Shown here in pieces: positions 5,892-40,721 of a DNA stretch of 64,000 nucleotides. This DNA is from Pyropia yezoensis (taxonomy: Eukaryota; Rhodophyta; Bangiophyceae; Bangiales; Bangiaceae). How positions within the stretch are numbered: position 1 is the stretch's first letter; each line of letters opens with the position of its first letter. Made by a program: the position numbers and the translations under genes. Where the stretch lies: the NCBI GenBank assembly GCA_009829735.1, contig CM020618.1:22181346-22245345 (forward strand). Direction: 5' to 3'. Below the pieces are notes generated by a model, which was not told the DNA's origin, made no database searches, and saw only the letters and a list, made by a program, of their open reading frames with translations.

Positions 5892-6360
5892 TGTGGCAAA
5901 AACCACTCGCACACACGGCACTCAAGTTGGGGCGGTGTACAAGGGCTGCCTCCCGTGTCGGGGGAACCGGAAGAAGTGCAAGTCGCACACACTCCGTCCC
6001 TGTTGTGGGGCAAACCCCCCACTGACAAACAAGAGGATGGTGTGTGGTCCAACAGTTTCTTGGTCGGGACGGGGACGCAGGGCCAAGCCCCGCTGTCCCT
6101 CCCCTTATCCCCCCAGGGTCCACTCGGAATCTCGCCACTCAGAATCTCCCACCCCAGCACCTGCCCACCGGGCCAAACGAAAATTCAAGACGATAAATGC
6201 AGAAAACCCTCGAATCCAAGTTGGATTTACTACTAAACTAACTATCCCAAACTTAGGGAATATGGACCCAAATGCAGGGGGAGGAACGGATCAGGCTAGT
6301 GGCCTGCCGCCCCTTGCATGGCACGTGTTGCCCCCCTACCTGGAAGACAATATTGCCACA
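5892..6360 (-). repeat. 3' LTR of family-A copy A2
   Basis: 469 bp, beginning TGTGGCAAAAACC and ending AATATTGCCACA on the plus strand. It matches the right LTR (25625-26093) base for base except for about seven substitutions, four of them clustered in the last 20 bases. Because the antisense gene starts 342 bases inside this LTR, the LTR could also supply a promoter in the opposite direction; that is inference. Confidence 0.95.
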
Positions 6361-6376
6361 CTCCCCTCTCCTCAGT
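6361..6376 (-). other. Polypurine tract of family-A copy A2
   Basis: Immediately inside the 3' LTR the minus strand reads ACTGAGGAGAGGGGAG, purine-rich and ending at the LTR boundary. This is the expected primer for plus-strand DNA synthesis. The equivalent flank beside the truncated LTR near 60921 is also C/T-rich on the plus strand. Confidence 0.75.
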
Positions 6377-6702
6377 TCCGACCGACCCGGTCGGCCCTGT
6401 GAGGGGGTGCGTAAACGCACGTCTCGGCGTTGGGGGAAGCGACTTGCTGTCCCCCCCCCTTGAGTACGTAACGCGGATGTGGAGGCGGTCACGTTGACCG
6501 CCCCTCTCCTCAAGCTTGCCCACTCGGAAGCTTGCTCTCCTCGGTTTACAACTCACCATCACCACCACCTCCCCCTTACCTTACACGGGGCCGCCCCACG
6601 CTGGGGAGGCCACCCGTCTACCCACGATCCGAGTCCCCCTCAACTCGAGGCGGGTCTCGTGCCGCTATAGCCAGGGCGTCTCTCCCCACCTTGGGGAGAG
6701 CC
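6377..6702. other. Leader between the 3' LTR and the antisense gene of A2
   Basis: No gene seen apart from in-frame upstream codons of the antisense ORF, open back to an ATG at 6532. It contains small palindromes such as ACCGACCCGGTCGG near 6381. No TATA box is obvious. Confidence 0.5.
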
Positions 6703-8616
6703 ATGGCGACTCCGGGGGTGGAGACGGACTCTCTCGATGAGCGTATGGAGGACACCTCCTACGGTGCAGCGCCCGCCGGGACTTCCGGCGGGGGCTCCGC
6801 GATTGCTCCGGGGGATGGGAATCCCGCGTCACCCGGCTTTGGGTTGACGGCGGGATCTCCCCCGGAGGCGGGACAAGTTGTCCCGCGTGAGGCCTTGGGG
6901 CGGTGGTTTTACCCCGCTTGGCCTCTATATGAGGAGGGGTTGACTGTTCTTCGCTGTGGCCGACTTGGCGCAGCGATGGGTCGAGTATGGGACCGCCTAC
7001 GGGAGAAGTATTCCCGTAGGGTCGGGTTCCCTGCCGGCTTCAGGACGGACCAGTTTGCCTTCCTGGACGACGAGGAGGTCGAGGACGTACAGCGGGCCAA
7101 GGCCATGGTGGACCGCGGGGGAACTATCCCGGGTCCCGGCGACTTGCCGACCTTTACTTGGGACGCGGTGGCAACTCGTCCCCCGTACCTTCACGAGGCC
7201 GATCCGCACACTCATCACTTTGATGTGCGGATGGAGAAGGACTTCCGGCGAGGTCCCTACTTGGTGACCTCGGCTGAACTTGAGTTTCCTCAGCAGTCTA
7301 CTGCCAGTAAGGAGCAGTACTATCCGAAGAAGCTCGAGTGGTGGCCTCAAGTTGAGGTCCCCTACGGGTTCCCGGCGTTGCTGCCTCGGTTGCTTGACCA
7401 CTTCGGCTCCGTCATGTCGACAGATGGCCCTGATCACCTGGTGTGGGCCATGTTGGCCACCCAGTGGCTCCTCGAGGTCATGTCGACCTGGGTCTCTTGT
7501 GTTCAGCGGCGGGGGATGCTCTGGCATCTCCCCCTCCGGCTTATCCAAGGTTTGGAACAGCTCACCCCTCAGCTAGTTGCTGAGGGGTGCTCATCAGGAC
7601 AACTCACTCTACTTGAGGAGATGCTCCGACTTCACAAGTTTATCGAGTGGGAGAGCATTGAGCACAAGTTGCGCCGCCCCACTCGTGGGCCCAAGGACGA
7701 TGGCGCACTTCGCCAGTTCGTGTGGGTCGCTCGTGAACTTCACGACGGCCGTGTGGTCCTACGAGAGGGGTTGGGCATCGGGGACTACCCGTATGCCCCG
7801 GGGGTGGATCGCCACACTGCGCCACCCCCGGACAAGTTCATAGTTATGGCCGTGCCGTCATATGATGACCATATGACTCAACGTACTGCGGGGGCCCCAA
7901 GTTGGGGTCGCAGTTACACCCGGGTCCCGCCACCTCGGCGTGTCCCTCCGCTTCCTCCTGTCCCCTACCAACCGCACGAGGACATCCCGATTAGCGTGGC
8001 CATTGAGTCGTCCACCCCGGTGTCCCCAAACTTGGGGGTCACCCTCCTGACGGTATACCCCAAGTTGGTGTTACCGCCCACGCCTCTAACCTCAGAGATG
8101 ATGATCACCACGTTGGTGCGCACCATTTCCTGGTTGGCCGCGTCGACCGCAACCCTCCAAACTTCCGAGACTCCTCAACTTGAGGAGCGCGTTCGTACTG
8201 CAGTGGCGACCGCGAGTTGCGAGTCGGTGGCGGAGTTCATGACGGCCGAGTTGGCTCGCATCGGGGCTATTATGCCCCAGCCAGCCCCACTTGGGCGTGG
8301 CAAACGTCGTGCGAGCCGGGCATACTCGCCTCCTCGCCGTCGTCGCCGTCACTCACGGCGCTCTCCCTCCGTGTCGGAAGAAGAGTTGTCTTACTCCGTT
8401 TCGGAGTCCTCTACCCCGTCGGAGACGGAGTCTGTCCGGCGTCTGCGTCGCAAACTTGCGCGCAGGACCAAGCAGAAGAGTAGCCACGGTCGGCGCCACT
8501 TGCGCGACCGTGAGAAGCGAGACGGGTCCGACTTGGAGCCGCCGGACCCGCCGACTGGTGGGGAGCGTTATCGCCGCGAGGGCCGTGGGATTGGTGAGTC
8601 TAGCATGCATGCCTAG
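6703..8616 (+). CDS. Antisense accessory protein of the family-A retrotransposon (novel)
   Basis: A 637-residue protein runs opposite to gag-pol, between the end of pol and the 3' LTR. The start at 6703 has the context GCCATGG; the frame is open upstream to 6532, but that part is Pro/Ser-rich. Acidic N-terminus, then a region with many aromatic residues. A block at about 7390-7660 contains FGSVM, RRGMLWHLP and LLEEMLRLHKFIEW, and it recurs with nearly the same spacing in the antisense gene of family B. The C-terminal ~100 residues are Arg/Ser-rich (PPRRRRRHSRRSPS), like an SR-type nuclear RNA-binding tail. No known domain recognised. It ends 228 bases from the pol stop, so the two genes converge. 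The C-terminus is also kept open in copy C (63716-64000). Function unknown; a role in regulating or exporting element RNA is only inference. Confidence 0.75.
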   Translation: MATPGVETDSLDERMEDTSYGAAPAGTSGGGSAIAPGDGNPASPGFGLTAGSPPEAGQVVPREALGRWFYPAWPLYEEGLTVLRCGRLGAAMGRVWDRLREKYSRRVGFPAGFRTDQFAFLDDEEVEDVQRAKAMVDRGGTIPGPGDLPTFTWDAVATRPPYLHEADPHTHHFDVRMEKDFRRGPYLVTSAELEFPQQSTASKEQYYPKKLEWWPQVEVPYGFPALLPRLLDHFGSVMSTDGPDHLVWAMLATQWLLEVMSTWVSCVQRRGMLWHLPLRLIQGLEQLTPQLVAEGCSSGQLTLLEEMLRLHKFIEWESIEHKLRRPTRGPKDDGALRQFVWVARELHDGRVVLREGLGIGDYPYAPGVDRHTAPPPDKFIVMAVPSYDDHMTQRTAGAPSWGRSYTRVPPPRRVPPLPPVPYQPHEDIPISVAIESSTPVSPNLGVTLLTVYPKLVLPPTPLTSEMMITTLVRTISWLAASTATLQTSETPQLEERVRTAVATASCESVAEFMTAELARIGAIMPQPAPLGRGKRRASRAYSPPRRRRRHSRRSPSVSEEELSYSVSESSTPSETESVRRLRRKLARRTKQKSSHGRRHLRDREKRDGSDLEPPDPPTGGERYRREGRGIGESSMHA

Positions 8617-8844
8617 TTGGGAGCTGCCTTTAATGAGAGAGTGTGAGGGTTAGGGCTGTAGTTAAAAGCCACTCTGCGTACCACTTCGACTTGAAGCACT
8701 CTCCTGGCACTGTTGCTCGGCCTTCCCTCACGTTGAGGGAGGGCTGTTAGGGTCCATCTCATTCCGGGCACAGTACGCCCGGACCTTCTCAGCGGGAAGG
8801 TCCTCCACATACTCCCACGTATCATCCTTGGCCTTGTAGCCAAA
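8617..8844 (-). pseudogene. Untranslated remainder of the pol C-terminus (chromodomain tail) in A2
   Basis: On the minus strand, in frame with pol and directly after its TAG stop, the sequence still encodes a chromodomain-like tail (FGYKAKDDTWEYVEDLP) and ends at a TAG near 8746. Copy C has Trp at the stop position (TGG, about 63562-63564) and reads through to a stop at 63680-63682. So a TGG-to-TAG change removed this part from A2. Between here and the antisense gene lies a 7-bp-arm palindrome at 8724-8740. Confidence 0.8.
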
Positions 8845-11800
8845 CTAACGCACCCTCCACATGAGGTGCTCGGTGTCCTCATCCCAGCCGTGGTCGATGA
8901 ACTTATCGAGCACGTACTCCTGCGGACCCTGTTTGGCCGCAGGCAGCGAGGGGAGGCGCCACGCTTCCAACGCACGCGCCCAAGCTGGGTCGCCTGCAGG
9001 CGGTGGTACAACTTTCACCACGTCCTGTCCGTTCACTGTGCGGACCCCATCGTCACTTTCGATGGTGAAGCGCCGCCCGTCCGTACGAAGGACCTGGTAC
9101 GGCCCCTTCGTCTGGAAAACCAACTTACCCCCAGTTGGGGTGTGTGAGTGTACCAGCACCCAGTCACCCTGCTCGGGGACATGCTTCGCATTGCGCACCT
9201 TTTTGTCAAAGGTACGCTTGTAGCGCTTTTGTGCTTTGTCCATCTCAGCCCTGACTTTAGGGATGAGGTTTTCAAGCCTAGCAGCGAACTCCGCCTTACT
9301 CTCAGTAGGAGTAGGCGTACTGCCACCATCCTCCCTAGTTGGGAGCGGCCGCCGCACAGCAATAGACCGCACGCGACGGGGGGTCACAAAAGCGAGGGGC
9401 ACTTCCCCGGTAGATGAGTGAACCTGCGAATTGTAGGCAGTGGTAAGAATGGAAATGTATTGGTCCCACGTCTTCACGTGCTCACTCACATAGTGGCGCA
9501 GCTGCCTAACAATAGTTTTGTTGAAGCGCTCCACCTGCCCATTAGTTTGTGGGTGGTAGGGGGTGGCATAGTTTGCCTTAACCCCCAACATATCCAGCAC
9601 TCCCTGAAACAGTACAGACACAAATTGCGGTCCATTGTCCGATAGTGTACTATCCGGAATGCCATACGCGGCAACCCAGTGATCTAGGAAGGCTGACACG
9701 ACCGACATGGCCGTGATCTCTGCCAGTGGGATCGCTCGCGTAAGTTTCGTGAAGCGGTCACAGATGACCAGGAGGTACTGGTTGCCCTCCTCGGTCACTG
9801 GCAGTGGCCCAAGGATGTCCATCGCCAACGCGGCGAAGGGCTCCTTGGCCGGGAACAATAGCATAGCCGTAGTAGGCCGCCGTTCCATCAGACGGTTCTG
9901 TGCACAACTTTTGCAGGCAGCCACCCAACTGTAGATGTCCACCACCATGGACGGCCAGTAGTACCTGGTCCTCAGGGTCTGGTACAGTTTACTAGACCCC
10001 AGGTGTCCACCCGTGGGAGCGTTGTGCTCCCTCTCAAGGATACTGTCCTTGAGGGATGCGGGGACGACAAGTTGTTCGGTCCCCTGGAATACCCCCCTCC
10101 TCATGAGGAGGCCATCATCTCCCAGAAAGAATCGCGTCTCCGCCACTGTATCCAGTGTATCCCTCTGCGACTTGCAGAAGAGATCCTCGGCCTGGGCCTT
10201 CACCACCTCGTCCAGGGACAAGGGCAAGTACTTCTTGTTCCCTGGCGCCTCGGGGTTCAACGCCTGACCCGAGCGCGTGACTACCCCCACGATGGGGATG
10301 TCCTCATCGACTGGGGTGGTGTCCAGTCCCTCGGTAGGTACCCGAGAGAGGCCGTCGGCAAGGGCATGTTGCCTGCCAGGTCGGTACTCAATATCAATGT
10401 TGAAGGGTGCCAGTCGCACCCTCCACCGGTTGAGACGAGTGTTCGTACAGTCCGTCTTGAAGATGAACTGCAACGCGCGGTGGTCACAGCGGATGAGGAA
10501 CTTCTCACCCTCTAGGTAGTGACGAAGTAACGTCACCGCCCACACCACTGCGAGTCCTTCCAACTCGGTGACTCCGTAGTTCTTCTCGGCCGAGTTTAGC
10601 CCTTTGCTGAAGTATCCCACCGGCAAGTACTCCTTGTCCGGCTGCTGCTGAAGCAACACACAACCAAGTTGGTCGTAGCTTGCGTCCACATCCAGGATGT
10701 AGTGGCCTCCCAACCTGGGAATAGCCAGGATAGGGGGCTTCAGCAGAAGGTCCCGAAGAGTCTCAAAGGATTCCTGCTCCACCCGACTTGGGGGAGGCAG
10801 GTTCTTCGGTAGCGTTGAGCTCACAAACTCATTCAACGGTTTCGCCACCTTGGCGAAGCCCTTGGTAAAACGTCGGTACACGTTACACATCCCGAGGAAG
10901 CTCCTCATCTGGGTCTGGGTCCGGGGGTACTGAGCCTTACGGATGGCCCTCAAGTTTTTCTCGTTGACACTGAGACGCCCCGGACGGACAACATGTCCCA
11001 AGTATTCCACCTCTTGAGTGAAGAGGTGGCACTTACTCGCCTTCAGTGACACACCGGCGTCAGCAAGTAGCTTGAACACCTGGCCAAGATGGCCAATGTG
11101 TTCCTCCGGACTTCGGGAGAACACAATGATATCGTCTAGGTACACGAGACAGATCTGCCACCGTACTCCGGCCAGAATCATGTCCATAGCGCGCTGGAAA
11201 GTTGCCGGCGCGTTACACAGGCCAAACGGTAGACGCTTGCACTGGTAGGTACCACAGTGACAGGCAAAGGTAGTTTTATGCCTGTCCTCCGGGGCAATGG
11301 GAATTTGCCAGTACCCCGCGTTACAGTCCAGGGTAGAGAACACGTTTGCCTCCCCCAGAGAGTCCAGACAGTCGTCCATCCTAGGTAGGGGATAACTGTC
11401 CTTCACCGTGCTCTCGTTGAGCTTACGGTAGTCGATACAAAACCGGGGGGTCCCATCAACTTTGGGGACGATAACCACCGGACTCGCCCACTCGGCGTTG
11501 CTGGCCTCGATCACATCGAGGGCCTCCATGCGAGCAACTTGCTCCTTAACGAGGGCCCTTGAACGGGGTCCTCCCCTATACGGTTGTTGGCGTATAGGGG
11601 GTGCACCGGGCTTCAACTCGATCCGGTGTTGGGTAGCTCTCATGAGTCCCAATTGACCATCCCACAACTTGTGATATTGGTCCAAGAGCCGTTCAACTTG
11701 AACCCTCAACCTGGGTGGGACACCCTCCATGTTCACATGGGGCCGAGGAGAGGCGGCCGACTTGGCTTGATGCTTCTCCTTTCCGGACTTTGGGTCGCTA

Positions 11801-12711
11801 CTTGCGCCCGCGTCGAGGGTGACCGCTACTACCGGTCCCTCGTGTTGGTCGATATAGCCGAACTTGGCTCTCGACTTGAAGTACTTGGGCGACGAGCTCA
11901 GGTTCATCACCTGGATCCTCCACGGGACTCCGGCTTTGGAGTCCATCGTGCCAAGGGCAACATGCACTTGGTGCTTGCGAGCAAGACGGGGGTTAGGGTG
12001 CACCAACCCGTTCCCCGTATAATCAGTTACAACATCAACGTGCGCCACCGAGTTGGGGGGCAACGTGACTTTACGGGCTAAACGCAGAGTAGCAGTAAAC
12101 CCTTCCCTCACCGAACAAACAGGCTTCGACTGTGAGACTGTCACAGGAGCCACAGACTTTCCCTTATCAAGGATGGGGATAGTCTCCCCATTCATCAACT
12201 TGACCGAGTACTCAGGGCCACAAATCAAAGGCACTTGTGCCACGACATAAGGGGTACCCAGAAGCAGGGGTACAGATATATTCTCAACTACACCATAGGT
12301 CACGTCGACCTCATGGGTCCCCAACCTAGTTGGTAGGGTCACGGCACCAACGATGGGAAGTACCCCGCCATTGATATCGATCAGATGGTCAGCTTTAGAC
12401 TTCCAGCGTTGGAGCTTCATCTCCTTTGGTAATAGCGACTTGCGTATCAAGGAAGCTCCTGACCCGGTATCAAGTACGATACGGGCACAACAGGCGCGGC
12501 CGGGGGCAAGTTGCACCCGTCCAGCCACCTGGAAGTTCTCACCCGTCAGCACCGCGATGACCCGACGTGGGTTTACGTTCTTGGGGAGTCCTACCCGAGG
12601 TGGGCGGACTCCCTTAGGTCGCCGCAGTATCCGGCACGGTTGGTTCGTCCTCTTGGCCCACTTGGCCGAGGCGACCGTTGTGAGCTTCGGACGACCAGCT
12701 CCAACGGTCAT
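8845..12711 (-). CDS. pol: Pol polyprotein of family-A Ty3/gypsy element (chromodomain truncated)
   Basis: The 1288-residue open frame encodes the enzymes that copy and integrate the element. Order: aspartic protease (VLDTGSGASL, about residues 78-87), reverse transcriptase ([20 protein letters not shown] and the catalytic YLDD near residue 522), RNase H (LDVDASYDQLG), integrase with an HHCC finger (HNAPTGGHLG to CKSC) and a DDE core (MDILGPLP, DNGPQF, NGQVERFN). A GPY/F-like segment and the start of a chromodomain follow. Protease-RT-RNase H-integrase order places it in Ty3/gypsy, and the chromodomain makes it a chromovirus. The ATG overlaps the gag stop as ATGA (12708-12711), which suggests stop-restart translation. 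The TAG at 8845 cuts the chromodomain; otherwise the frame is intact. Confidence 0.95.
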   Translation of the reverse strand: MTVGAGRPKLTTVASAKWAKRTNQPCRILRRPKGVRPPRVGLPKNVNPRRVIAVLTGENFQVAGRVQLAPGRACCARIVLDTGSGASLIRKSLLPKEMKLQRWKSKADHLIDINGGVLPIVGAVTLPTRLGTHEVDVTYGVVENISVPLLLGTPYVVAQVPLICGPEYSVKLMNGETIPILDKGKSVAPVTVSQSKPVCSVREGFTATLRLARKVTLPPNSVAHVDVVTDYTGNGLVHPNPRLARKHQVHVALGTMDSKAGVPWRIQVMNLSSSPKYFKSRAKFGYIDQHEGPVVAVTLDAGASSDPKSGKEKHQAKSAASPRPHVNMEGVPPRLRVQVERLLDQYHKLWDGQLGLMRATQHRIELKPGAPPIRQQPYRGGPRSRALVKEQVARMEALDVIEASNAEWASPVVIVPKVDGTPRFCIDYRKLNESTVKDSYPLPRMDDCLDSLGEANVFSTLDCNAGYWQIPIAPEDRHKTTFACHCGTYQCKRLPFGLCNAPATFQRAMDMILAGVRWQICLVYLDDIIVFSRSPEEHIGHLGQVFKLLADAGVSLKASKCHLFTQEVEYLGHVVRPGRLSVNEKNLRAIRKAQYPRTQTQMRSFLGMCNVYRRFTKGFAKVAKPLNEFVSSTLPKNLPPPSRVEQESFETLRDLLLKPPILAIPRLGGHYILDVDASYDQLGCVLLQQQPDKEYLPVGYFSKGLNSAEKNYGVTELEGLAVVWAVTLLRHYLEGEKFLIRCDHRALQFIFKTDCTNTRLNRWRVRLAPFNIDIEYRPGRQHALADGLSRVPTEGLDTTPVDEDIPIVGVVTRSGQALNPEAPGNKKYLPLSLDEVVKAQAEDLFCKSQRDTLDTVAETRFFLGDDGLLMRRGVFQGTEQLVVPASLKDSILEREHNAPTGGHLGSSKLYQTLRTRYYWPSMVVDIYSWVAACKSCAQNRLMERRPTTAMLLFPAKEPFAALAMDILGPLPVTEEGNQYLLVICDRFTKLTRAIPLAEITAMSVVSAFLDHWVAAYGIPDSTLSDNGPQFVSVLFQGVLDMLGVKANYATPYHPQTNGQVERFNKTIVRQLRHYVSEHVKTWDQYISILTTAYNSQVHSSTGEVPLAFVTPRRVRSIAVRRPLPTREDGGSTPTPTESKAEFAARLENLIPKVRAEMDKAQKRYKRTFDKKVRNAKHVPEQGDWVLVHSHTPTGGKLVFQTKGPYQVLRTDGRRFTIESDDGVRTVNGQDVVKVVPPPAGDPAWARALEAWRLPSLPAAKQGPQEYVLDKFIDHGWDEDTEHLMWRVR

Positions 12712-13282
12712 TCGTTTCCCGCCGACTTGGCGTCCGAATCTGAGGGCGAAGGGGAAGACGACGAGTCCGAGGACGACGTGTCCGCCCCCTCCGCCGAGGG
12801 TGTGGCGACCGCCACCACTGGTCGAGACCCACCCTCGCGGCGTAAACGTACTTCGTTCGTAGCCGACTTCTTACTCGCATTCCTAACAAGTTGTTGGATG
12901 CGTTTACTCAACCTGGGGCAATCATATGCCCAGTGTCCATCGGAGTTGCAGTTCCAACACCGATGGTCAGTTCCCGGAGGGGTCTTCCCAACTGGGGAAG
13001 ACGAAGGGATACCCTGGGCAGTTCCCACGGCAGCTACCACCCTCTCCTTGCGGATTCGGCGTGCCTCTCTCAACTCTCTGGCCTGGCGCGCCTCCTCCCG
13101 TTCCTTGGCCAACTCGGCTTGACGCTCCTGGCGTTGTTCCTCCCGCAACTTGCGGTAGGCCTCGCCTCTGCGGTAGGCGAACCTAGCCAACTCGGCCAGG
13201 GTCGCCCGGGCAGTGTTATGCTCCCGGGTCTCCATCCGGACTGACCAATGGAGTCCCTCCACAAACCGACTCTTCACCACAG
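12708..13282 (-). CDS. gag: Gag of family-A copy A2, 3' portion (split by nested element B)
   Basis: The nucleocapsid half of Gag starts at VKSRFVEGL next to the nested LTR. It carries a long Arg/Glu/Gln-rich helix (YRRGEAYRKLREEQRQER), a CCHC zinc knuckle (CX2CX4HX4C, CWNCNSDGHWAYDC, at about 12960-12919) and a Ser/Asp-rich C-terminus ending AGNE. The knuckle binds element RNA. The stop overlaps the pol start as ATGA. Its 5' half continues at 24129-25505, where the reading frame resumes after B and the CACAG duplication are removed, so this gag was whole before B arrived. Confidence 0.93.
13278..13282. repeat. Target-site duplication of nested element B, left
   Basis: CACAG precedes the left LTR of B and is repeated at 24129-24133 after its right LTR. 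The uninterrupted site CCACAGCTTGTGG is visible in copy A1 at about 507-519, which confirms the insertion point. Confidence 0.95.
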
Positions 13283-13645
13283 TGTAGCACAATAGGAATC
13301 CGTCGCACGTCCACTCTCAGGGAACACTCACCAAGGGGGATCGGCACCAACGTCACCGGGAGGCCAAGGTTGCTGTCCTTGGAGCGCAAGCCACGGGACC
13401 AAGATGGGAGCCCAAATGGGAGGGGTTTGTTGTTCTGCCTTGGCTGGCGGTGGATTCGCCGCCGGCCCCCTCGTTATAAACCCTCGGAGACACTACTAAC
13501 TACCCTCCACCCCAAGATGCAAGTCCCTCTGGTCATACGTAACTTATAGATACTGGGACCAGTACGAACTATCAAATTGAAAGTTAAGGGTTAGAAGTAG
13601 CCCCCCTAATATTAGGGTCACAATACGGACAACCATATTGCTACA
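13283..13645 (-). repeat. 3' LTR of family-B element
   Basis: 363 bp with TGTAGCAC...TTGCTACA ends. It is identical to 23766-24128 except for one base (ATACTGGG against ATACCGGG near 13553). It contains a TATAAA at about 13476, usable as a TATA box on one strand, and an AT-rich segment near its right end. Confidence 0.96.
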
Positions 13646-13659
13646 TATCCCCCCCTTAG
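13646..13659 (-). other. Polypurine tract of family-B element
   Basis: The minus strand reads CTAAGGGGGGGATA up to the 3' LTR start: a purine run of seven G in the position expected for the plus-strand primer. Confidence 0.8.
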
Positions 13660-14249
13660 ATTCGACCCGTCCTCGTGTCGAGTTGCATTCGGGTAACCGA
13701 ATGTAAGTGGGTCGCGTGACCGTTTACCAGTCGGGTGGGGCTTTGCGCCCCGTCGCGACAGACACCCCTTTTCGAGGTTGTCTGAGGGGGGTGCCCCCCT
13801 TTGTGTGGTACACACACTTGATCCGTTTTCCGGACCGTTAAATTCCCGATGCGGGTTTCTGCTCACGACCCCCCTTTCCGAGGGGTGGTGCAAGCGGATC
13901 CGCCACCAGGTGCCTGGTGGTAGGGAGGCCCCACTCGAGTGGACGATTGAGTGGGGGGCGGGGGCTGCCCGCGTTGAGTGGGGGCGGTTGGGGGTGACCC
14001 CCCCTTGCTTACCCCGTGTGTGGGTGTGGCCCCGTCCCGCCCAGGTGCCTGGGTGGAGCGCGTTCGTAGCCCCGTGGGGCGCGGGTCGACCCGCGTGCCT
14101 GCGGCGCTTCTCGTGGCCGTTTGTGGTCATAAGCGCGGGTGCCCGCGCTTCCCTGGCTCGTCCCGGTTGTCCCACCGTACCGGGTCGTAGCCGTCGACGG
14201 CTTGTGGGCGCGGGGGACGATGCCACCCGTTATCATGTCCTAGCCCCAG
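13660..14249. other. Leader between the 3' LTR and the antisense gene of B
   Basis: No supported gene. It is dense in perfect palindromes: 13903-13920 (CCACCAGG-TG-CCTGGTGG), 14040-14053 (CCCAGG-TG-CCTGGG) and the 16-bp palindrome at 14080-14095. It would be the 5' leader or promoter region for the antisense gene. Confidence 0.55.
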
Positions 14250-16681
14250 GTGCTTGGGGAGGAGGAGGACCTCCTGATCGGGGAAGAGATGGAGGACGAC
14301 GCGCCTGTCGGTCCCGACGCCGCGCGTTACGGGGTGAGCTCGTCTGACGACGACGCGCCTGCTGTGTCCGTCCGTCTGTCGGCCGGAGGACTGTCGTCCG
14401 TGTGCCGCGGCACGACGGTGCCGTCGGCCGGAGGTCAACCCGGCGGTCAACCGCGCGTGGCGGCTTCTACCCCCCCTCTGCCGGCTGCCCGGATGGAGCC
14501 TCGTGCCGGTGCCGGTTCACCGCAGCTACCCCAAGATGGTCGGCCCTGCGGAGGAGGTGGCGACCCGCAGCCGACTCCGGCTGGTCAAGGTGGTCCGGGT
14601 GTCCGGGCGGTGACTCCTCGAGGCGGCCCCGACATTGACGCGGGTGGTGGTGGCGGTGCGACACCCGGTGCGGCGAGTCAAGACGGTGCGGGTGTCCGCA
14701 CGGCCGGTGCTCCGGCTCCGGAGGCTGTCCAAGTGCCTTCCCCTTCCGAGGCGGGGGCTACGTCGACGGGTGGTGCCGGCGCCGGTACCCTACCCGCGGT
14801 GCCGCGGGCGTCGAGCGGTCAAGACGCTCCTTCCCCCATGGCCGTTGACACCGGGAGCTACTCCGGGCGGGCGCCCGCCCTTCTTCTTCCTCCTCGGCCG
14901 CGCGTGCCTCCGGCGCCGGCCCCTCTGCCGGTGGTGCGTCCCCCGGCACCCCCGATTCTTCCTGGTCCTGCCCGGGTTGCCCCGTTGGGTGGCGGCGTCG
15001 CCGTGGCAGCGGGTCAACCCGCCATGTCGATGTCCGACTTGGTGGCTCGGGTTCGAGGCCTGTCTGTGCAAGAGGCAATGGAATCCGATGGGCGGATGCG
15101 GGTGGACTTCCACCTGCCCCATCCCCGTGGAGAGTCCTCCCGGCGTGTCAAGGTGGACCCGAGTTGGGAGCGGGAGTTGATGCGGCTGGTCAACCAGCCG
15201 AATGCGGTGCGGGTGGAACACCATTGGATCCTGAGTCAGCCGGACGACCGGCATGCGCAGCTCTGGCGCACCCGGGTGGGACGGGGTGAGGTCTACCTCG
15301 ACCCCAACTTCGGGGTATGCGACCTGATTGCCCCCGCGTTGCCGCGGGAGATTGTCTACCCGGCTAGTGCTCGGGGGATTGCGTCGGCAGCGGAGCCGGT
15401 TGCGTTTGGGGAGACGGTGGGCAGTACCGGTCGGTATCCCGACTTTGACTACTACCCGGGGGTACCCCCGTATCTGTCGTTGACGGCTCCCTACCCGCCT
15501 ATGGCGGGGTTGAAGTCGGCGTCGAGCTGGCGACGTAACCATGGTGTCATGGCGGATGCGTTCCGCACCGATATAACGTGTGCGTTGCAGACCGGCAACG
15601 GTCGTGCGCCGGTATACACTCCCGTGCGCCCGCCTCTGTGGCAGGAGGGGTGGGAACCCGCCCCTGCTTTCCGGTTTGACACCGGCTCCTGTCTCCGATA
15701 CTTCGGGAGTGTGTTGGCCTCCCGGCTGGTCCACCCGTTGCAGGGTACCTTCACCCTTGAGGTTACCCTCGGGCAGGCTTTCTCCTTCTTGCTGTCCGTC
15801 CGCCGGCAGGGGCGCCTGTTTCATCTTCCGACGGGTGTCCGTCGGCACATCGCGCAGTTGGGCGTGGACCTGATAGCTGCCAAGACCGGGTTGGCCCGGG
15901 AGTTTGAGTCCCTGCTGGCTGTTCACGATGCCGTGAACTGGGCTGGGGTGTTGGCCCTTCCCCCGTACCGGGACCCGCAGGCTGGGGCTACCCCCTTGCC
16001 TCGTCACTCGTTCGTATCCGGCGTACTCAGCCGGGTGAGCCCTGTTGCCATGGGTGGGCGTCCACCGAGGCTGTTGCTGACCTGGGTATTCCCATGGTTA
16101 TCCATGACCCTCTTCAGGTCCTTGCCCCGTGGTTCGGTAACCCGATACCGGCGGCGGTTGGCCGTCGTCCCCGAGAGTGGGGCTCTGCGGGTGGGGAGCG
16201 TGATGTGTCCCGTCGTCGGGCGGAGCCCCGCCGGGTCTACGGTGGAGCCCCTTCGGTAGGGTCCTACCGGGCCTCGTATCATGTGCCACCGGCTCCGGTG
16301 GTAGCCGTGTCGGCTCCTGTGGCTCCTCTGGCTGCGCCAGTGTCACCTCCCGTCCCTGTCATGCCTGACGGGGGGCCCCGTCTCTGGTATGAGGGCGTTG
16401 ACGCCCTTGTTACCCGCGCAATGCGGGGGGGTCTCTCTGTTAGCTGGGGGGATATCCCCCCAGGTGCTGCGCTGGTTGGGTCAGCGCGTTGCTTCGGTGG
16501 CATGCTTGACCGCCTCCAGAAAGCTCTGGAGGACGTGGAGGCTGGCCGCAGCACCCTCGTCCAGCTATGCACCGAGGTAACTCGGGTGATTGACCGTCGT
16601 GAGATTGCCGACCGGTGGAGCACGGAGGTATACGCGCTTACGCGTGAGTGGCCTCCCTCGGGCAGTGGGTCTACCCACTGA
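14250..16681 (+). pseudogene. Antisense accessory gene of the family-B retrotransposon, probably frameshifted
   Basis: The plus-strand frame runs open from ATG 14250 to 16259 (669 residues), opposite to gag-pol and placed as in family A. It has an acidic N-terminus (EEEDLLIGEEMEDD) and a Gly/Pro/Ala-rich linker to about 15000. A globular region follows with CLRYFGSVL, RRQGRLFHLP and FESLLAVHDAVNW, matching the family-A protein in motif and spacing. From about 16040-16090 the better-looking protein switches to another frame (ADLGIPMVIHDPLQVLAPWF) and continues to 16681. An indel therefore probably splits the gene; a natural frameshift or an intron is less likely. No RS-rich tail like that of family A was seen. 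No known domain; function unknown. Confidence 0.65.
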
Positions 16682-17181: not shown

Positions 17182-20100
17182 TTACAGAAGGCGTCGTCGC
17201 CTCATGTAAGGCATGAGGAGTTGGCGGGGTATATTTGCCGCCTGTTCCCAGGTGGGTGAGTCGTATCCGACCCACATAACCTTGACGTACCAGGGTCCTG
17301 GTAGGTCCGGGTCGGTGTGTCCGACCACGCTCTCTACTTGGTATGGAATCCCATCCGGTCCCCCCGGGTCATCTGACCGGTGGGTTGTAAGAGCTTCATG
17401 TAGCAACCCAGCCGGTACTGGCTGAGGCTGTTCCGGCTTCGGAGCAGGTGTGACGTCATTCACACTGATGCGTTGGATCTCCGTATCGGAGTGTAAGATA
17501 ACAGAGTGGTCATCTCTGTGTAAGATCTGGTACGGTCCCTTGACCGGTTGCATAAGCTTGTTCCCTCGGAACTTCTGGTGTCTGATATATACCCAGTCAC
17601 CTGTCACCAGGGTTGCGTTGCGCACCCGTAGTCGGGCGTCGAAGTTCCTCTTATAACGAAGCTGTGTTCTGTCAAGGGCACCCTTGAGCTTAGGAATCAT
17701 CCACGATAGCTTGGCCAACCAAGCTAGGTGGATGCGTTCGGCCGGTCGGCCCTTCTGTGTATCATACCGAGTGCACCTGCCGGGTGGCAGCGTCAGGTTA
17801 CCGACGCCTAAGGGCATGACCCACTCCAGCGGAGCGATGTTTGTGCTCCGATGTGGCCTGGCATTATATGCCAGGGTGAGTACGGACAGAAGCCTGTCCC
17901 AAGTGTTCGTGTGCTCGGCCACGTAGCACTGTAGCATCTTCACGATGGTGCGGTTGAACCGCTCCACCTGTCCGTTGGTTTGCGGGTGGTAGTCGGATGC
18001 CCGACGTGGTTCGATGCCGAACATGCCCAGGACCTTAGTGCAGAATGCCGACGTAAGCTTTGCTCCGTTGTCGGAGAGGAGTTGCTTCATGACTCCGTAT
18101 GCACTGATCCAGTGGTCAACCACTGCGTTCATGATCGTGTATGCCGTATCATTCGGGATGGCTGCCGCTCGTGACAGCTTGGTGAAGCGGTCCGACATGA
18201 CCAGGATGTACCTGTTCCCTTCTTCCGTTACCGGAAGTGGCCCGAGTATGTCGATAGCGACTTGCTCGTTGGGCCCATCAGGTGGGAACAGTTTCATGGC
18301 AGACGCCTGCCTATGTAGACTCATGCGGTTACGTGCACAGGGGTGGCATCCCCTTACGTGGTCGACCACGTCGACGGCCATTGCTGGCCAGTAGAAGAAC
18401 CTTCGCATTGCTGCGAACATACGTGAACCCCCCGGGTGTCCGGCTGTGGGGTTCTCGTGTTCTCGTTCCATGACGGCTTGCCGTAAGGACACGGGAACCA
18501 CGACTTGATGTCGTCCATCGGCGGGTGCCCGCCGGTATATGAGTCCGTCTTCGTTCTCGGAGAAGATGCCAGCCGTACCGGCCAGGAGGTTAGCGCGATG
18601 GCGTCTACAGTCGTCGTCATTGGCTTGTGCCTCGCGGAAGTCCGCGAGGGTCAGTGGGCATGCTCGGTGTGCCATGGTATGGTCAACCATACCTTGGGTG
18701 GCGTTACCCACCATGCAGACCGGTACCACCGGGATGTCTTCGTCCACCGGGCGGGTATCCCCGCTCGGGGTGTCGAGTCGAGACAATGCGTCTCCGAGAT
18801 GGTGGGTTGACCCAGCCTTATACACGGTACGGTAGTCGTGCTCGGCCATCTTCAGCCTCCATCGGGCTAGCCTCCCGTGGCTATCGGAATCCTTGTCACC
18901 AAGGTTGAGGAGCCATCGTAGGGGTTCGTGGTCGGACCTCACGATGAACCTGGAGCCCTCCAGGTATGGACGGAGCAGTTGCACTGCCCATATAACTCCG
19001 AGGCACTCACGCTCGGTGGCACTATAGTTACGTTCAGCCGGGTTGAGTGTCCGGCTGAAGTACCCTACCGGACGTAGGTCCGGGATAACGTTATCGGTAC
19101 CGATCAACGTCTCTCCTTGTAACAGGGTGCATCCCACTTGTGTATCACACGCATCGACATCGATGACGAAGGTCCCCTGTCTATGCGGTAACGCAAGGAC
19201 GGGTGGGGATAGTAGGGCTCGCTTCAGCGACTCGAATGCCTCCTCTTCGCTAGGCGAAGGGGGTTGGAGTACCTTGGGTAAGGTACTGCTCGTAAGAACC
19301 GTTAACGGTTTAGCTATCCGAGCGAAGTCCTTGACGAACCGTCGGTATACATTGCACATTCCCAGGAAGCTCTTGAGCTGCGTCTGGGTGTTAGGGAACC
19401 GGGCATCCCGGAGTGCCCGGGTATTGGCTTCTAGTACCCCTAGTTTACCAGGGGTTATCTGGTGGCCCAGATACTCGACCGTCTGTTGGAAGAAGGCGCA
19501 CTTCTTCAGACGCAGGGTTACCCCGGCGTTCCTCAAGAGGGTGAGTACCTCGTCAACATGTTGCACATGGTCATCCATGTTACGCGAGAAGACGATGACG
19601 TCATCGAGGTACACTAGGCAGTTACGCCACTTCACCCCCGACAGTATAATGTCGATAGCCCGCTGGAATGTAGCGGGGGCGTTGGACAATCCGAAGGGCA
19701 TCCTTAGGAACTCGTACACTCCACTGTGACAGACGAATGCCGTCTTGAGGATATCCTCGTCCGCCACCGGGATCTGCCAGTATCCGGCATTGCAGTCGAT
19801 GGTGGTAAACACCGTAGTTTACCCCAGGGAGTCGATGCATTCATCCATCCTTGGTAAAGGGTATGAGTCCTTCTTGGTAACCAAGTTGAGGCGTCGATAG
19901 TCGATGCAAAACCGAGGGGTTTGATCCTTATTCGGTACGATAACGACTGGGGCACCCCACTCCGACATCGAAGGTCGTATCACCTTCGCTTCGCTCATCC
20001 TCTTCACTTCTCCATCAACGATCTCTCGTTGCATAGGTCCCGCTCGGTGCGGCTGTGACCGGGCGGGGCGTGCGCCTGGTACCAGGTCAATACGATGTTG

Positions 20101-21348
20101 GGTTGCCCCAATGGTACCCAAGGCCCCGCCTGTCCACATGACGTCATGCTTTCTTAGCATCCGTCGTACCCCTTCGGCTACCGAAGGGGGAAGGTGGTCG
20201 AGGTCAGCCTCGGCCAGGGCCTTCAATGCTTCTTGGTCCTTCGGCGGAATATCCGCCGGTAGTGATGGTCGACTAGGCTTCCCGTCATCGGGTTGCTGTC
20301 GCTCGGTGGTCTCGGCGACCGCCAGCACCTCAAGTGGTTCCACTTGACCTTCCTTGTCAGGGGTAAGGATATCTCCTTCGTAGAGCTCGGCAATCCCGAG
20401 GATAGTTCCCTTCGGGAGGGTGACTGCCTTACGGCGATAGTTCGCCATCACTAGGAGGGACGACCCTCCTGCTGGGAGGTCTATGAGACCGTTGGCCATG
20501 GTCAACCCATGGCGCTTGTACGTCCGCAGGTTGGACTGGACTCTGCAGATGCCTGCGAGGTCACAGTTAACCGGGAGGACTGTCTCCGACAACGTCTCAA
20601 AGCGAATTCGCTTGGCCAACCGAAGTGTCTTCGGCTCGACGCTTGCGTACACCTCAGCCACGTTAACGTGGCTCCCTTGTAGCGTCAGGTCCCTGACGAT
20701 AGCCGCATGTCCTTGCTTCGTCCCGTCGGCTTCTGGAAGCTCGACGGTCCTCCGGCCTGGCCGGATTGCATCAACGTGAACGTTGATGAAGGTGCATCCC
20801 AGTATGCAGGGCACCGATAGGGTTTCACACACCAGGAAGTCAACTTCCGTAGTCAGTTCCCCGATGGTAACCCGCAGCGACATCGCTGCGGTCGTACGAA
20901 TGAGGCGACCATTCGCGTCCTTGATGGTGGGTCCCCGAGTCACTCTGACTCGCGGAAGCCACTTGTCCGGGAGGGTATCCTTCCGGATAAGGTTGGGTCC
21001 AGCCCCTGTATCCAGTACAGGGTAGTACGATCGTGTCGACTGGGGGTCAACCCCCAGTGTAGCTGATACCTTGAAGTTCTCCAAGGTGAACAGTACGTGA
21101 CCTACACCGATATCCGGTGTAGCTCGGGCATCCTGAACAGGGCCCTTGTCTGGTTCAACGTGACGGGGCATCCCGTCCTCTCCTCCCAACCTTGGAGGTT
21201 GGTCATCAATCCCCTGACGCCGTGTCGTCGGGGCCGGAAGGTGTACCCGGGGGTTGATGCGGCGTCGGCTCAACCGCGCTCTCCGTGGGGCCTTCCCCGC
21301 GGTACTCCGGGGTGGCTTGCTTGGGTTACCCCAGCGCCCCCCGGTCAT
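17182..21348 (-). pseudogene. pol: Pol polyprotein of family-B Ty3/gypsy element with one in-frame stop
   Basis: The frame is open from ATG 21348 to a stop at 17182 except for one TAA at 19819-19821. That stop lies between IDSLG and TTVFTTIDCN in the reverse transcriptase, where family A has Glu. Domains: protease ([12 protein letters not shown], about residue 110), RT ([17 protein letters not shown] and the catalytic YLDD near residue 579), RNase H (IDVDACDTQVG), integrase HHCC finger and DDE core (AIDILGPLPV, DNGAKL, NGQVERFN), GPY/F-like segment and an intact C-terminal chromodomain (VESVVGH, YVKVMWVGYDSPTWE). The chromodomain would direct integration to marked chromatin. The start lies eight bases after the gag stop, in another frame. 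Without readthrough this copy makes no complete RT. Confidence 0.92.
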
Positions 21349-21356
21349 CCTTCCTC

Positions 21357-23309
21357 TTACTCGTTTCCCGCCCTTGGTAGAGTGCTGTCCGCCGGGACAT
21401 CCGGCTGAGGAGGTACCTCCTCGACGGCCAGTACTCCGCCTGGGGCTGGCTGCCTACCCGGTGCGGATCCGGGTGCTCTGGCGGGATACCCCCCGGTGGA
21501 TGCCTTGCGTTGCGCCGCTGCCCGCCGAGACTCCTCGGGGATGAGTGGGCAGGAAGACACCCAGTGTTGGGGATCCCCACACAGCATACATCCGGACGTA
21601 CCGGTCCCCCCTTGAGTTCGCATCGGGGTAGCCCCGTAGTTGCGGTTGCCTCCCTCGGGCGCCCGAGAGCCTGCTCCTTGGTAGGCCTTGGGTCCTTGGG
21701 TCAACCGGAACATGGACTCCCCCAACCGGTTGGGTCGGCCCGCAATCTGCGGAGGTGCCTCCGTGCGCACCGCCCATGTTGGCAAGGGTTGGTGAGGGTT
21801 ACCCGTCACCGGGGAGTACCCCGTAGTCCGTACGTACGGGACGCGACGTCCCGCTCCTTCGTTGACCTGGAACTGGGTTCCAGCCGGGGCGATGTACGCT
21901 ACCGTACCATGTTCATCAATCACCGGCGTCGCCGGTAGCAACAGGTGGCCCTGTTGGTCGACTAGAGGTTCATCCTCACCCGAAGGGGGATGTTCGGTCG
22001 CCACCAGTACTGGTGCGGCCTTACGCTCCACCTTCTCTTGCCTCGGTACCGGGGTAAGACTGGGCTTGCCTCCCTCACCCTTGGGCTTCGGGGCCAAGGC
22101 ACACTCCGGGTGTAGCACCCGGTAGGCGTCCCCTAGGGACTTGCACATGTGCATCAGTCGACTGAAGTTCGTCCGGGCCGTATTGGCTCCCCGTGCGGAT
22201 ATCCGCACGTAGTTGGGTACTCCTGCGAACAGGATGGCCCGTAGCTTCCCTTCTCCGAGGAGCTTCCCCAGCTCGTAGTCGAGCTCTTGGATCCGGCGTC
22301 CAAACATCTCCTCATCCTCCCAGGACTGGGCGGTGGCAGTGCGAAGGGCCCGATAGTGGTCCTCGCACTTGTCCTCACTGAGGTAGCTGCTAAGCAGCTC
22401 CTTCAATATCCCACGGGAATCCATGGGGGTGGCTGCGACCCTCATTCCCGGCATCGGGGATGCCTGGCGAAGAATGCCTCGCACCCGTTTATCAACAAAG
22501 AACGGGAGGATCTCCAGTGCCAGCCCCTCGTTGACGAGCGCCTTGTCCGCGGCTGCCTTGAAGCTAGTCAAGAAGCCAATGACTGCCAACGGACGTCCGT
22601 TGGGGCCCCCGAACATAGGGACTCCCTTCATAAGGGTCTGCATAGAGCGAATCGCTCGATGCGACGTATTACGCATCGATTCCGATACGGTGGTAGAGCG
22701 GTCCTCCAAACGATAACGTTCCGGAGTAAGAACCGACCGGAAGACTTCGTTGACGATCTCCGTGTCAGCGTCCTGGATATTCAGTCGCTTAGCCAGTTGG
22801 TGAGCGAACTCATCGGACTCCATCCGCTTCAGTAGGCTCGCAGTTACCTGCGCGGTCATAGCTTCCACCACTGAAGATGGTACTTCAGGCGTCGGCGCCT
22901 CGGGAGCCCGAGTTGCCTGGCCTCCTTCGTCGTGGGGATACTGTGAGAGGGTACCCCCTCCCCCAATAACCGACTCTCCACCGGCGTAAGTATCCGCCGG
23001 GTCGTGTCCGCGGAGTCCGCTTCGGGTGCTCCGAGCGTATCGCTCCGTGTGACTCCGTTCCAACTCTGCCGACGAGTCGGATCCATACCCCATTGTGTCC
23101 GGGGGTTGTCCGGGAGTTGCTGCACCGGGGTCGACCCTGGTGGACTCCGAAAGTAGTCCGGCCGGTTCGAACCGTACCGGTGTGGGAGGAACACGACGGG
23201 GTCCCGTCGTGTGGCGTGTTGACATCAGCACTGCCATTGCGTCCTCCGTCCGATCTTGACGAGCGTCGAGCCCGGAAAACCGGGCCTCGATGCGGGCCAA
23301 TGATGCCAT
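21357..23309 (-). CDS. gag: Gag of family-B Ty3/gypsy element
   Basis: A 650-residue frame from ATG 23309 ([20 protein letters not shown]). It has a Ser/Gly/Pro-rich N-terminal third and a helical capsid-like centre ([39 protein letters not shown]). A CCHC zinc knuckle follows ([14 protein letters not shown], near 21590-21549), and the C-terminus ends AGNE, like Gag of family A. The same frame is open further upstream to 23546 (MTMSTQETGNVQ) but is broken by a TAG at 23352-23354, so either the natural start is 23309 or the N-terminus has acquired a stop. It packages element RNA; the pol ATG lies eight bases downstream. Confidence 0.88.
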
Positions 23310-23765: not shown

Positions 23766-24128
23766 TGTAGCACAATAGGAATCCGTCGCACGTCCACTCT
23801 CAGGGAACACTCACCAAGGGGGATCGGCACCAACGTCACCGGGAGGCCAAGGTTGCTGTCCTTGGAGCGCAAGCCACGGGACCAAGATGGGAGCCCAAAT
23901 GGGAGGGGTTTGTTGTTCTGCCTTGGCTGGCGGTGGATTCGCCGCCGGCCCCCTCGTTATAAACCCTCGGAGACACTACTAACTACCCTCCACCCCAAGA
24001 TGCAAGTCCCTCTGGTCATACGTAACTTATAGATACCGGGACCAGTACGAACTATCAAATTGAAAGTTAAGGGTTAGAAGTAGCCCCCCTAATATTAGGG
24101 TCACAATACGGACAACCATATTGCTACA
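23766..24128 (-). repeat. 5' LTR of family-B element
   Basis: 363 bp, TG...CA ends, one base different from the left LTR. It is followed on the right by the CACAG duplication (24129-24133) and the resumed family-A gag. Confidence 0.96.
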
Positions 24129-25505
24129 CACAGCTTGTGGATGAAGAAACCCACAAAGATTGTTGAGCTTACGGACTCGCTCCGCAAAGGACAACTCGTC
24201 CTCCGCCTCTTCCTGATGGGCTTGCGTAAACTCCTCGACTTGAGAAGCCAACGCCGCTTCATCAACCATGGCTCTCAACAACCAGTTGACGAGCTCCAAA
24301 TAGGACGTCACCTCCCCAGCGCCTCCACTTGAGGAGCTGGGCATGACGGACATAAGTTCTGTCCGCAGGTCGCCCTTCGTAAACTCCTGTAGCATATAAA
24401 AAGCCATGCCTTCACTTATGGCATTGTCGTCACAGGCTTTTGTGAAACGACGTAGGAACTCAAAGACACGGAGGGGGGGAGTTCCATCCCACTCCGCTTT
24501 GTGCCCAAAAGAGTGGAGTGCATTCTTCTTGGCACGGCCCATGGCTCGGGCCTGGTCAGGACCATACGCCACCGACTTGTTGTGGAGGGCGTAGGTCTCA
24601 CAGTCAAAGATCCTCTGGTAGACCGGGTTGGCTACCTGGATGTTGGGCGGCACCTCACGTTGAGGGAACAGCCGCTGTGGCACTGGGGTAAGTTCACCCT
24701 CAGTGCCTGTAGTCCGGCGCGGCGCGCTTGGTGTAGCCGCCGGCGTTGCCGGGGGGAACTCTCCCATGAAGGGCGTATGCCCCACCGAGTATGGTGTGGC
24801 TCCCTCGTTGGGAGTCACAGGTGTCGCCCCCTGTTCGGGGCGACCCGAGATGGGCGTGAGGGGGGATTCCCCCTGCGCCTGCGGGCTCGAAAGCCCCAAT
24901 CCGGTCTGGACATTAAGGCCATCTGGCAAACTCGCCACAATCTGATTCAGAATAGTATTCGTCATCGTGACCACCAGGTCCGGCAAAGTCTGCCGCAACA
25001 CATTGGTCGCCTCCCGACGGACAGTTTCCGCGAGGAGTGGATTGACGACTCCAGTTGAGTCTCGGTCCGCCTCCGGGAGTCCACCTGAGGGGTAACCACG
25101 TTCCTCAGGGGTCTCAACCGGGGGCATGGGCGCAAGCCCATCGCCGACCAACGGAGGTCCGCCGTCCTCCGAAAGCCTAGTTGGCGACGGCTCCATGCCA
25201 AAGTTGGCTCCAACCCGAGTGGAACCCGCGGGGACAGTCCTCACCCCTTGGGACGTTCCCGTTGAGTATACCACGCGGTGGCCAGACTTCGGCCCACCCA
25301 CATCAGAAGTGTCACCCGAGTGAACTCCCGACTGAGTCGGGGTGGCCTGTTGCCCGCCCGCACTTCCAGTCCTGCTGGCTTGTGGGACCTCTAGTCCCTC
25401 TGCGACCCCAGGTAAACCCACCTGTGTCTCACCAGTATTCAAAGGCACTGAAGTACGTGCGTCACCCGTGTACTCCCCGGACGACGGGGGGTCCGAGCTA
25501 GCCAT
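24129..25505 (-). CDS. gag: Gag of family-A copy A2, 5' portion
   Basis: The start is ATG 25505 (MASSDPPSSGEYTGDA). Upstream codons are open to 25529 but have no ATG. A long Pro/Ser/Gly/Thr-rich N-terminus is followed by a capsid-like region (HKAEWDGTPPLRVFEFLRRF, YLELVNWLLRAMVDEAALAS, RVRKLNNLCGFL). The segment stops making sense at the nested LTR (24128) and resumes at 13282. Apart from that insertion no frameshift or stop was seen, so A2 Gag was intact when B inserted. Confidence 0.92.

Positions 25506-40682: not shown

Positions 40683-40721
<39 letters not shown>

What the first reader, a model, noticed from the sequence alone, without database searches (positions are those of the whole stretch)
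6703..16681. Two different Ty3/gypsy families carry a homologous large gene antisense to gag-pol
In family A (6703-8616) and family B (14250-16681) a 640- to 800-codon gene lies between the pol end and the 3' LTR, on the opposite strand and convergent with pol. The proteins share FGSV(M/L), then a basic R(R/Q)G(M/R)L(W/F)HLP motif about 33-35 residues later, then a LLEEMLRLHKFIEW / FESLLAVHDAVNW helix about 34 residues after that. Gag and pol of the two families are otherwise very different, so the gene was present in a common ancestor or has been exchanged. Antisense ORFs in this position are known in some plant Ty3/gypsy elements (for example Retand and Grande/RIRE2 types), but I recognise no domain here and know of none described in this kind of host.
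Basis: partly seen in the sequence, partly recalled or inferred. Interest (0 to 1): 0.88.

Follow-up and report, generated by a model that had tools for sequence, protein, structure and literature searches.

The report
Selected antisense gene in seaweed retrotransposons
Two families of LTR retrotransposons in what appears to be the nori seaweed genome carry a large extra gene on the strand opposite to their other genes; natural selection preserves its protein, although it matches no known protein domain and its job is unknown.

Summary
Element A (LTRs 5892-6360 and 25625-26093) and element B (LTRs 13283-13645 and 23766-24128, nested in A's gag) each carry a large ORF between pol and the 3' LTR, antisense to pol and convergent with it. 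The two proteins are homologous (41.2 bits; best of 2000 shuffles 30.0; hhalign E 1.4e-5). Contig sizes match Pyropia yezoensis, a red alga. In 7 A copies the antisense ORF has dN/dS 0.131, pol 0.142; between B subfamilies 0.27-0.33 (pol C-terminus 0.07-0.10). Relatives occur in subfamily B3 (about 55%) and in Pyropia vietnamensis. No Pfam, PDB or Transposase_28 match was found; AlphaFold models were poor. It is a real accessory gene in the position of plant aORF-3R genes (Retand, Grande, RIRE2), with a protein not recognisably related to theirs. An antisense frame is not new for algae: REM1 of Chlamydomonas has one (integrase GPY/F plus chromodomain). I found none reported for red algae in a limited library. 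Function is inferred only: most likely a nuclear regulator. Side finding: both elements are studded with short hairpins; in part of B pol the arms covary.

The parts
5892..6360 (-). 3' LTR of element A (469 bp; 98.5% identical to 25625-26093); TSD GCTGG outside both LTRs
6361..6372 (-). polypurine tract of A next to the 3' LTR (read on the minus strand; by position and composition)
6373..6702 (+). spacer between polypurine tract and antisense ORF of A, rich in inverted repeats; possible promoter/leader of the antisense gene or structured RNA (unproven; not more conserved than the LTR: 0.045 against 0.025 differences per site)
6703..8616 (+). antisense accessory ORF of A, 637 aa; part alignable to B about residues 129-320; weakly predicted C-terminal helices about 464-519; Arg/Ser-rich basic tail about 531-600
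8845..12711 (-). pol of A (protease, RT, RNase H, integrase); this copy stops inside a chromodomain-like C-terminus (by reading); 9 of 9 other copies examined have no stop at that codon
13283..13645 (-). 3' LTR of element B (TG...CA; BLAST match with the other LTR 99.45%); TSD CACAG; inserted in gag of A
13649..14249 (+). stretch between polypurine tract and antisense ORF of B; 14 inverted-repeat pairs found
14250..16259 (+). antisense accessory ORF of B: low-complexity N-terminus and homologous core; start codon uncertain (GTG under table 11; first in-frame ATG 14289); the frame is shifted after about 16013 in this copy
16094..16681 (+). C-terminal part of the same B protein in a shifted frame in this copy; in one frame in P0010 and L022, L023, L024, L027
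16991..17105 (.). 24-bp tandem array, 4.8 copies, between antisense ORF and pol end of B
17182..21348 (-). pol of B, interrupted by an in-frame stop between 19812 and 19822 in this copy
21357..23309 (-). gag of B (by position and a weak zinc-knuckle match, E 0.06)
23766..24128 (-). 5' LTR of element B; primer-binding-site sequence follows on the minus strand
24134..25529 (-). N-terminal part of gag of A beyond the B insertion
25625..26093 (-). 5' LTR of element A; same primer-binding-site sequence as B

Best explanation
The antisense ORF is a genuine accessory gene of a Bangiales (red algal) Ty3/gypsy lineage, inherited with gag-pol since before families A and B split. SHOWN: conserved position, opposite orientation and frame; purifying selection on the protein; homology between A, B1, B2, B3 and Pyropia vietnamensis proteins. 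INFERRED: the gene is transcribed from a promoter near the 3' LTR, convergent with the genomic transcript, and its protein (low-complexity N-terminus, conserved core, helical C-terminal part, basic tail in A) acts in the nucleus as a nucleic-acid-binding regulator of the element's transcription, RNA fate or integration, as has been proposed for plant aORF-3R proteins. A selected protein-coding gene is near certain (about 0.97); the nuclear regulatory role is about 0.35.
For: dN/dS: 12 A copies each against the window copy 0.144-0.251, and a more diverged, broken copy (L010, first 445 codons) 0.269. Over the 21 pairs of 7 copies with complete pol: antisense ORF 0.131, pol 0.142; regional pN/pS lowest in codons 241-320 (0.054), which hold two of the three motifs. 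Non-mirror wrong frames give 1.0-2.6; the mirror frame that shares third positions gives 0.24-0.44, above the true frame in each of the five comparisons. B1 against B2 0.273-0.329; B1 core against B3 0.24-0.29. No stop in 58 of the 64 A matches scored (best of 11,579 candidates, window copy included, so biased to intact copies). In 13 of 14 B loci L021-L034 (window copy included) the pol end was found, always on the opposite strand; L031 gave no pol match. In 9 of 9 A loci L011-L019 pol is opposite too. Relatives: P0012, P0013, P0014, P0016, P0021, named hypothetical proteins of Pyropia vietnamensis. Arg/Ser-rich basic tail in A. Plant precedent: nuclear Grande GENE23 with its own promoter (PMC7264820, parts 1 and 2 of 3 read).
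Against: No expression data. No significant Pfam match or PDB sequence match (best E 0.49), and both AlphaFold models are poor, so nucleic-acid binding is not shown. The spacer before the ORF is not conserved beyond the LTR once L017 is left out (0.045 against 0.025 differences per site; ORF third positions 0.077); an earlier figure of 0.12 for the LTR came from L017, where a B-type LTR stands in that place. So a promoter there has no support from conservation. The basic tail of A is its least constrained part (pN/pS 0.27-0.33; 59 codons against the copy at 64000 show no third-position excess), and B has no equally strong basic tail. Within B2 the pairs L029-L030 and L031-L032 give 0.65 and 1.03, as for copies decaying after insertion. 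In B the protein changes three to four times faster than the pol C-terminus.
Confidence: 0.55

Rival explanations
1. Fortuitous open frame: a GC-rich sequence leaves a long antisense frame open without a function.
For: GC-rich region; B also has a 435-codon open stretch on the minus strand.
Against: dN/dS 0.13-0.33 between subfamilies and across A copies in this frame against 1.0-2.6 in non-mirror frames; homologous proteins in another species; the ORF lies outside gag and pol.
Confidence: 0.01
2. The antisense RNA matters, not only the protein: a convergent transcript pairs with the genomic RNA and sets copy number through small RNAs.
For: Convergent arrangement; strong predicted folding near the polypurine tract; proposed as a possibility for plant aORF-3R (PMC7264820).
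Against: Selection acts on the amino-acid sequence, so RNA alone cannot explain the gene; the two roles can coexist.
Confidence: 0.12
3. Structural or envelope-like protein, or a second Gag that became inverted.
For: Mostly helical core in the weak model of A; large size.
Against: Profile comparison with gag gives E 0.41 and 0.33; highest 19-residue Kyte-Doolittle mean 1.39 in the three proteins measured, so no clear membrane segment.
Confidence: 0.12
4. A captured host gene kept by the element (transduction or a nested insertion).
For: No similarity to gag or pol; the Pyropia vietnamensis relatives are annotated as host hypothetical proteins.
Against: One of those clusters has 19 member sequences; the own-genome loci that I read are element-linked (13 of 14 B, 9 of 9 A). 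Only best matches were scored, so a lone host homologue is not excluded.
Confidence: 0.2

Closest known systems
Plant aORF-3R genes: Retand (TRP28 / Transposase_28, PF04195), Grande GENE23, RIRE2
   Same: Large gene between pol and 3' LTR, antisense to gag-pol, conserved like other element proteins; tandem arrays can occur in the same region (PMC11963269: abstract, sections 11 part 1 and 12; PMC7264820: parts 1 and 2).
   Different: No PF04195 match in the proteins tested or in the genome search. Host is a red alga. Pol ends in a chromodomain-like stretch (B: Pfam Chromo E 0.23, below cut-off; A: by reading), whereas Retand is described as non-chromovirus.
REM1 of Chlamydomonas reinhardtii
   Same: Algal Ty3/gypsy element with a reverse-frame ORF.
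   Different: REM1's reverse frame keeps the integrase GPY/F module and chromodomain (passage in PMC2774666; the original paper is not held; a PHD finger is recalled only). Here integrase is in sense pol and the antisense protein has no such match.
Boty of Botrytis cinerea / Sclerotinia
   Same: Named in PMC7264820 as a non-plant element with an antisense aORF.
   Different: Sequence not available to me; not compared.
Tekay 5' aORF proteins of sunflower and grasses
   Same: Proline-rich, largely disordered accessory proteins with predicted nuclear signals, conserved over about 500 copies (passages of PMC11728184).
   Different: Located 5' of gag-pol; no sequence comparison made.

Membership tests
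Ty3/gypsy LTR retrotransposon (elements A and B) | Paired LTRs with TG..CA, target-site duplication, PBS and PPT positions, gag, and protease-RT-RNase H-integrase order | tested here: met
   gag recognised mainly by position; the priming tRNA was not identified (one search found no tRNA gene in the window)
aORF-3R kind (antisense accessory gene between pol and 3' LTR) | Position, antisense orientation, present and conserved across copies like other element proteins | tested here: met
   copies were the best-scored ones
aORF-3R kind | Antisense transcription from its own promoter (reported for Grande) | not testable with these tools
   no RNA data; spacer conservation gives no support
Retand TRP28 / Transposase_28 (PF04195) | PF04195 domain in the antisense protein | tested here: not met
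   hmmscan: up to E 1 on P0001-P0003 and the 16 members of A4, up to E 10 on 7 proteins or pieces; six-frame genome search 0 hits (a weak test: its control rang only below cut-off, in E. coli). A distant relation is not excluded.
REM1-type reverse ORF | Chromodomain / GPY-F module in the antisense protein | tested here: not met
   no Pfam Chromo match in the antisense proteins; integrase is in sense pol
ATHILA ORF1 (PF03078) | PF03078 match | tested here: inconclusive
   0 hits, but no control genome rang; hmmscan silent as well
Gag-derived protein | Profile similarity to gag of A or B | tested here: not met
   (shallow profiles)
One family for the A and B antisense proteins | Significant sequence similarity | tested here: met
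One family for the A and B antisense proteins | Same predicted fold | tested here: inconclusive
   models below usable confidence

The most novel reading that the evidence does not exclude
The antisense protein is a Rev-like reader of the element's own RNA: both families carry many short perfect hairpins along gag, pol and the antisense region, with the strongest predicted structure beside the polypurine tract, and the protein recognises this hairpin code to export, package or protect the genomic RNA. That would be a new kind of retroelement regulation: a trans-acting antisense gene matched to a hairpin-marked transcript.
Probability: 0.07. Interest if true: 0.92.

Novelty: new variant of a known kind. 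Interest (0 to 1): 0.6.

Why it matters
Antisense accessory genes of LTR retrotransposons are described mainly from plants, and the papers that I read give them no established function. A selected one in red algae, whose protein is not recognisably related and which persists in subfamilies at dS above 1, says that the arrangement exists or arose outside plants and that the gene does something the elements need. Many copies with open frames in a sequenced genome of about 107 Mb make the question testable with RNA and protein work.

Tried and rejected
Chance open frame: rejected by selection tests. Gag origin: no support in profiles. TRP28 and chromodomain membership: not met. A supposed third element family left of the window proved to be a B-type fragment. 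My first reading that antisense gene and pol of B1 and B2 diverged at one rate was dropped: synonymous divergence varies along the gene and reaches 0.83 in the core against 0.42-0.44 in the pol C-terminus. Collection scans without a relative: viral contigs, genome contigs. Rfam: one match, mir-44, 25.4 bits against a cut-off of 54. Because the models were poor no fold search was run. Rows left out of dN/dS: B loci L025, L028, L033, L034 (frameshifts, gaps or stops); for pol of A only 7 copies were used, others being interrupted or not fetched whole; of L010 only the first in-frame 445 codons. L012 and L003 have one internal stop each, whose codon was skipped. L006 and L013 are near-identical neighbours and not independent.
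Full report
WHERE. The window lies in G000:C1:22181346-22245345 of a 107,475,971-base assembly in 11 contigs. Contigs C1-C3 are 43,592,136, 34,331,705 and 29,385,039 bases and match the three scaffolds of 43.6, 34.3 and 29.4 Mbp reported for Pyropia yezoensis (passages of PMC7423979). The host is therefore most likely this red alga (inference from sizes; relatives named Pyropia vietnamensis agree). That paper names LTR retrotransposons as the predominant repeats and does not contain 'antisense' in its main text.

ANATOMY. Element A runs from 5892 to 26093: LTRs of 469 bp at 98.5% identity, TSD GCTGG on both sides. Element B is inserted in gag of A: LTRs 13283-13645 and 23766-24128, BLAST match 99.45%, TSD CACAG. 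Both have gag and pol on the minus strand, the same sequence at the primer-binding-site position and Pfam matches to RT, RNase H and integrase. Their pol proteins are 41-47% identical; gag, compared over the N-terminal part of A, 27%. Between the end of pol and the 3' LTR each has a large open frame on the plus strand, convergent with pol. The window copies are not perfect: pol of A stops inside a chromodomain-like end where 9 of 9 other copies do not, pol of B has an in-frame stop, and the antisense ORF of B is frameshifted where P0010 and several loci are not.

HOMOLOGY. The A and B antisense proteins align over 196 positions at 23% (41.2 bits, E 1e-7). The best of 2000 shuffles that keep local composition reaches 30.0 bits, the reversed sequence 26.2, and the other frames of both regions at most 25.4. 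Profile against profile gives E 1.4e-5, probability 80 (the A profile rests on two sequences). Database searches (3 of 3 used; each scored only the candidates sharing most words) found P0008 for A, P0009-P0011 for B and, with a profile, 15 proteins, 12 of them new, five named hypothetical proteins of Pyropia vietnamensis (P0012, P0013, P0014, P0016, P0021). P0022 proved to be a further subfamily, B3, in this genome (99% at C2:9532685 and C2:9542978); there too the ORF is convergent with pol, which is 86.5% identical to B pol, while the antisense protein is about 55% identical.

SELECTION. Twelve A copies against the window copy give dN/dS 0.144-0.251; a diverged copy gives 0.269. For seven copies with complete pol, 21 pairs, the antisense ORF has 0.131 (mean dS 0.117) and pol 0.142 (mean dS 0.090). 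For B, six B1 and four B2 copies give 0.195-0.235 between the window copy and other B1, 0.141-0.428 among the other B1 copies (few changes), 0.273-0.329 between B1 and B2, and 0.318-1.03 within B2. B1 core against B3 gives 0.24-0.29 at dS 1.09-1.26; pol 0.073 at dS 1.26. So the protein is selected, about as strongly as pol in A and more weakly than pol in B. These are pairwise Nei-Gojobori values on related copies, not independent events, and copies came from the best matches (64 scored of 11,579 candidates for A; 149 of 2255 for B), which favours intact ones.

ORIGIN. Position, orientation and primer-binding-site sequence are shared, and B1-B3 divergence of pol and antisense core agrees, so descent from a common ancestor is the simpler account. 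Close subfamilies do recombine: along the B1-B2 alignment synonymous differences rise from 0.08 to 0.54 per site, and the core (dS 0.83) exceeds the pol C-terminus (0.42-0.44).

WHAT THE PROTEIN MIGHT DO. No significant Pfam hit (HTH_IclR, DUF3545 and DUF6214 appear far below cut-off), no PDB sequence match, no clear membrane segment, no similarity to gag. AlphaFold gave mean pLDDT 35.0 and 35.9, with helices in the core of A and 23 residues at 70-90 in the C-terminal helices of the Pyropia vietnamensis protein; I drew no fold conclusion. A has a strongly basic Arg/Ser tail. The spacer between polypurine tract and ORF is not specially conserved: leaving out L017, differences per site are 0.025 in the LTR, 0.045 in 6373-6702, 0.036 in the ORF and 0.077 at its third positions; the block 6392-6441 is at 0.009, but several LTR stretches are as low, and 6542-6591 is at 0.108 (correcting). 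The first 150 bases inside the 3' LTR have the most extreme folding z-score of the windows tested, -7.3 in the gag-pol sense, against a mean of -1.46 and a minimum of -3.9 in 64 gag-pol control values; other windows within the ORF reach -5 to -6.7, so this is the extreme of a structured region. By analogy with Grande GENE23 (nuclear, own promoter) and the regulatory role proposed for aORF-3R proteins (PMC7264820; PMC11963269), I take a nuclear regulator as most likely; nothing here shows it.

COMPARISON WITH THE KNOWN. The arrangement is that of plant aORF-3R genes. In Retand 97% of clusters carry TRP28, which that paper places only in flowering plants. TRP28 is not detected here. REM1 of Chlamydomonas has a reverse-frame ORF holding the GPY/F module and chromodomain, a different protein. 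My ten paper searches listed no report of such a gene in red algae; most listings were capped (for example 12 of 251, 10 of 147), I saw titles and abstract starts only, and the library lacks most subscription journals.

SIDE FINDING. Both elements are studded with short perfect hairpins (arm 7, loop 2-8): B pol 31 against 1.9 expected, B spacer plus antisense ORF 20 against 2.1, B gag 9 against 1.1, A antisense region 11 against 1.2, A pol 9 against 2.1; for comparison a copia element 3 against 1.4, a host genic stretch 14 against 9.6, the A LTR 0 against 0.4. Between B1 and B3 pol (17185-19812 part) 147 of 174 arm pairs still pair and 9 show compensatory double changes against 2.07 expected from shuffled changes, reached by 0 of 500; in the reverse direction 4 against 1.16, reached by 12 of 500. 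The protease-RT part, the antisense core B1-B3, the antisense ORF B1-B2, A pol within A, and A pol against B1 pol show no excess. This suggests, for one region only, selection on hairpins inside coding sequence; the shuffles do not model codon constraint fully.

Noticed in passing
6361-13282 and 13646-23765: Short perfect hairpins, 40 and 116 with arms of 6 or more, in both Ty3 elements, coding parts included, well above dinucleotide-shuffled expectation; in part of B pol the arms covary between B1 and B3 (9 compensatory changes against 2.07 expected), no excess in five other comparisons.
   Followed up: partly
6361-12711: In element A the hexamer AACTTG/CAAGTT is over-represented (11 against 0.7 in 6361-8844; 9 against 1.5 in pol), sometimes inside a palindrome; not so in B.
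   Followed up: partly
6361-6510: Most extreme predicted folding of the windows tested (z -7.3 in gag-pol sense, 60 shuffles) right beside the polypurine tract.
   Followed up: partly
16991-17105: 24-bp tandem array (4.8 copies) between antisense ORF and pol of B, a feature also described for plant Retand elements.
   Followed up: no
L017 (G000:C2:8105410-8115409): An A copy in which a B-type LTR end abuts the A spacer in place of the A LTR and polypurine tract: nested insertion or recombination.
   Followed up: no
60944-64000: A deleted A-family copy on the plus strand with 5' LTR, gag start and pol end, continuing beyond the window into L010.
   Followed up: partly
G000:C2:9532685 and 9542978: Subfamily B3 gives two 99% matches about 10 kb apart in inverted orientation, with open frames of 850 and 895 codons.
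   Followed up: partly
51743-54922: A Ty1/copia-like gag-pol frame of 1059 codons on the minus strand (by reading, no domain search).
   Followed up: no
40612-44172: Long open frame of 1186 codons with a TAF6-like histone-fold stretch, near a run of N (identified by eye from recall).
   Followed up: no
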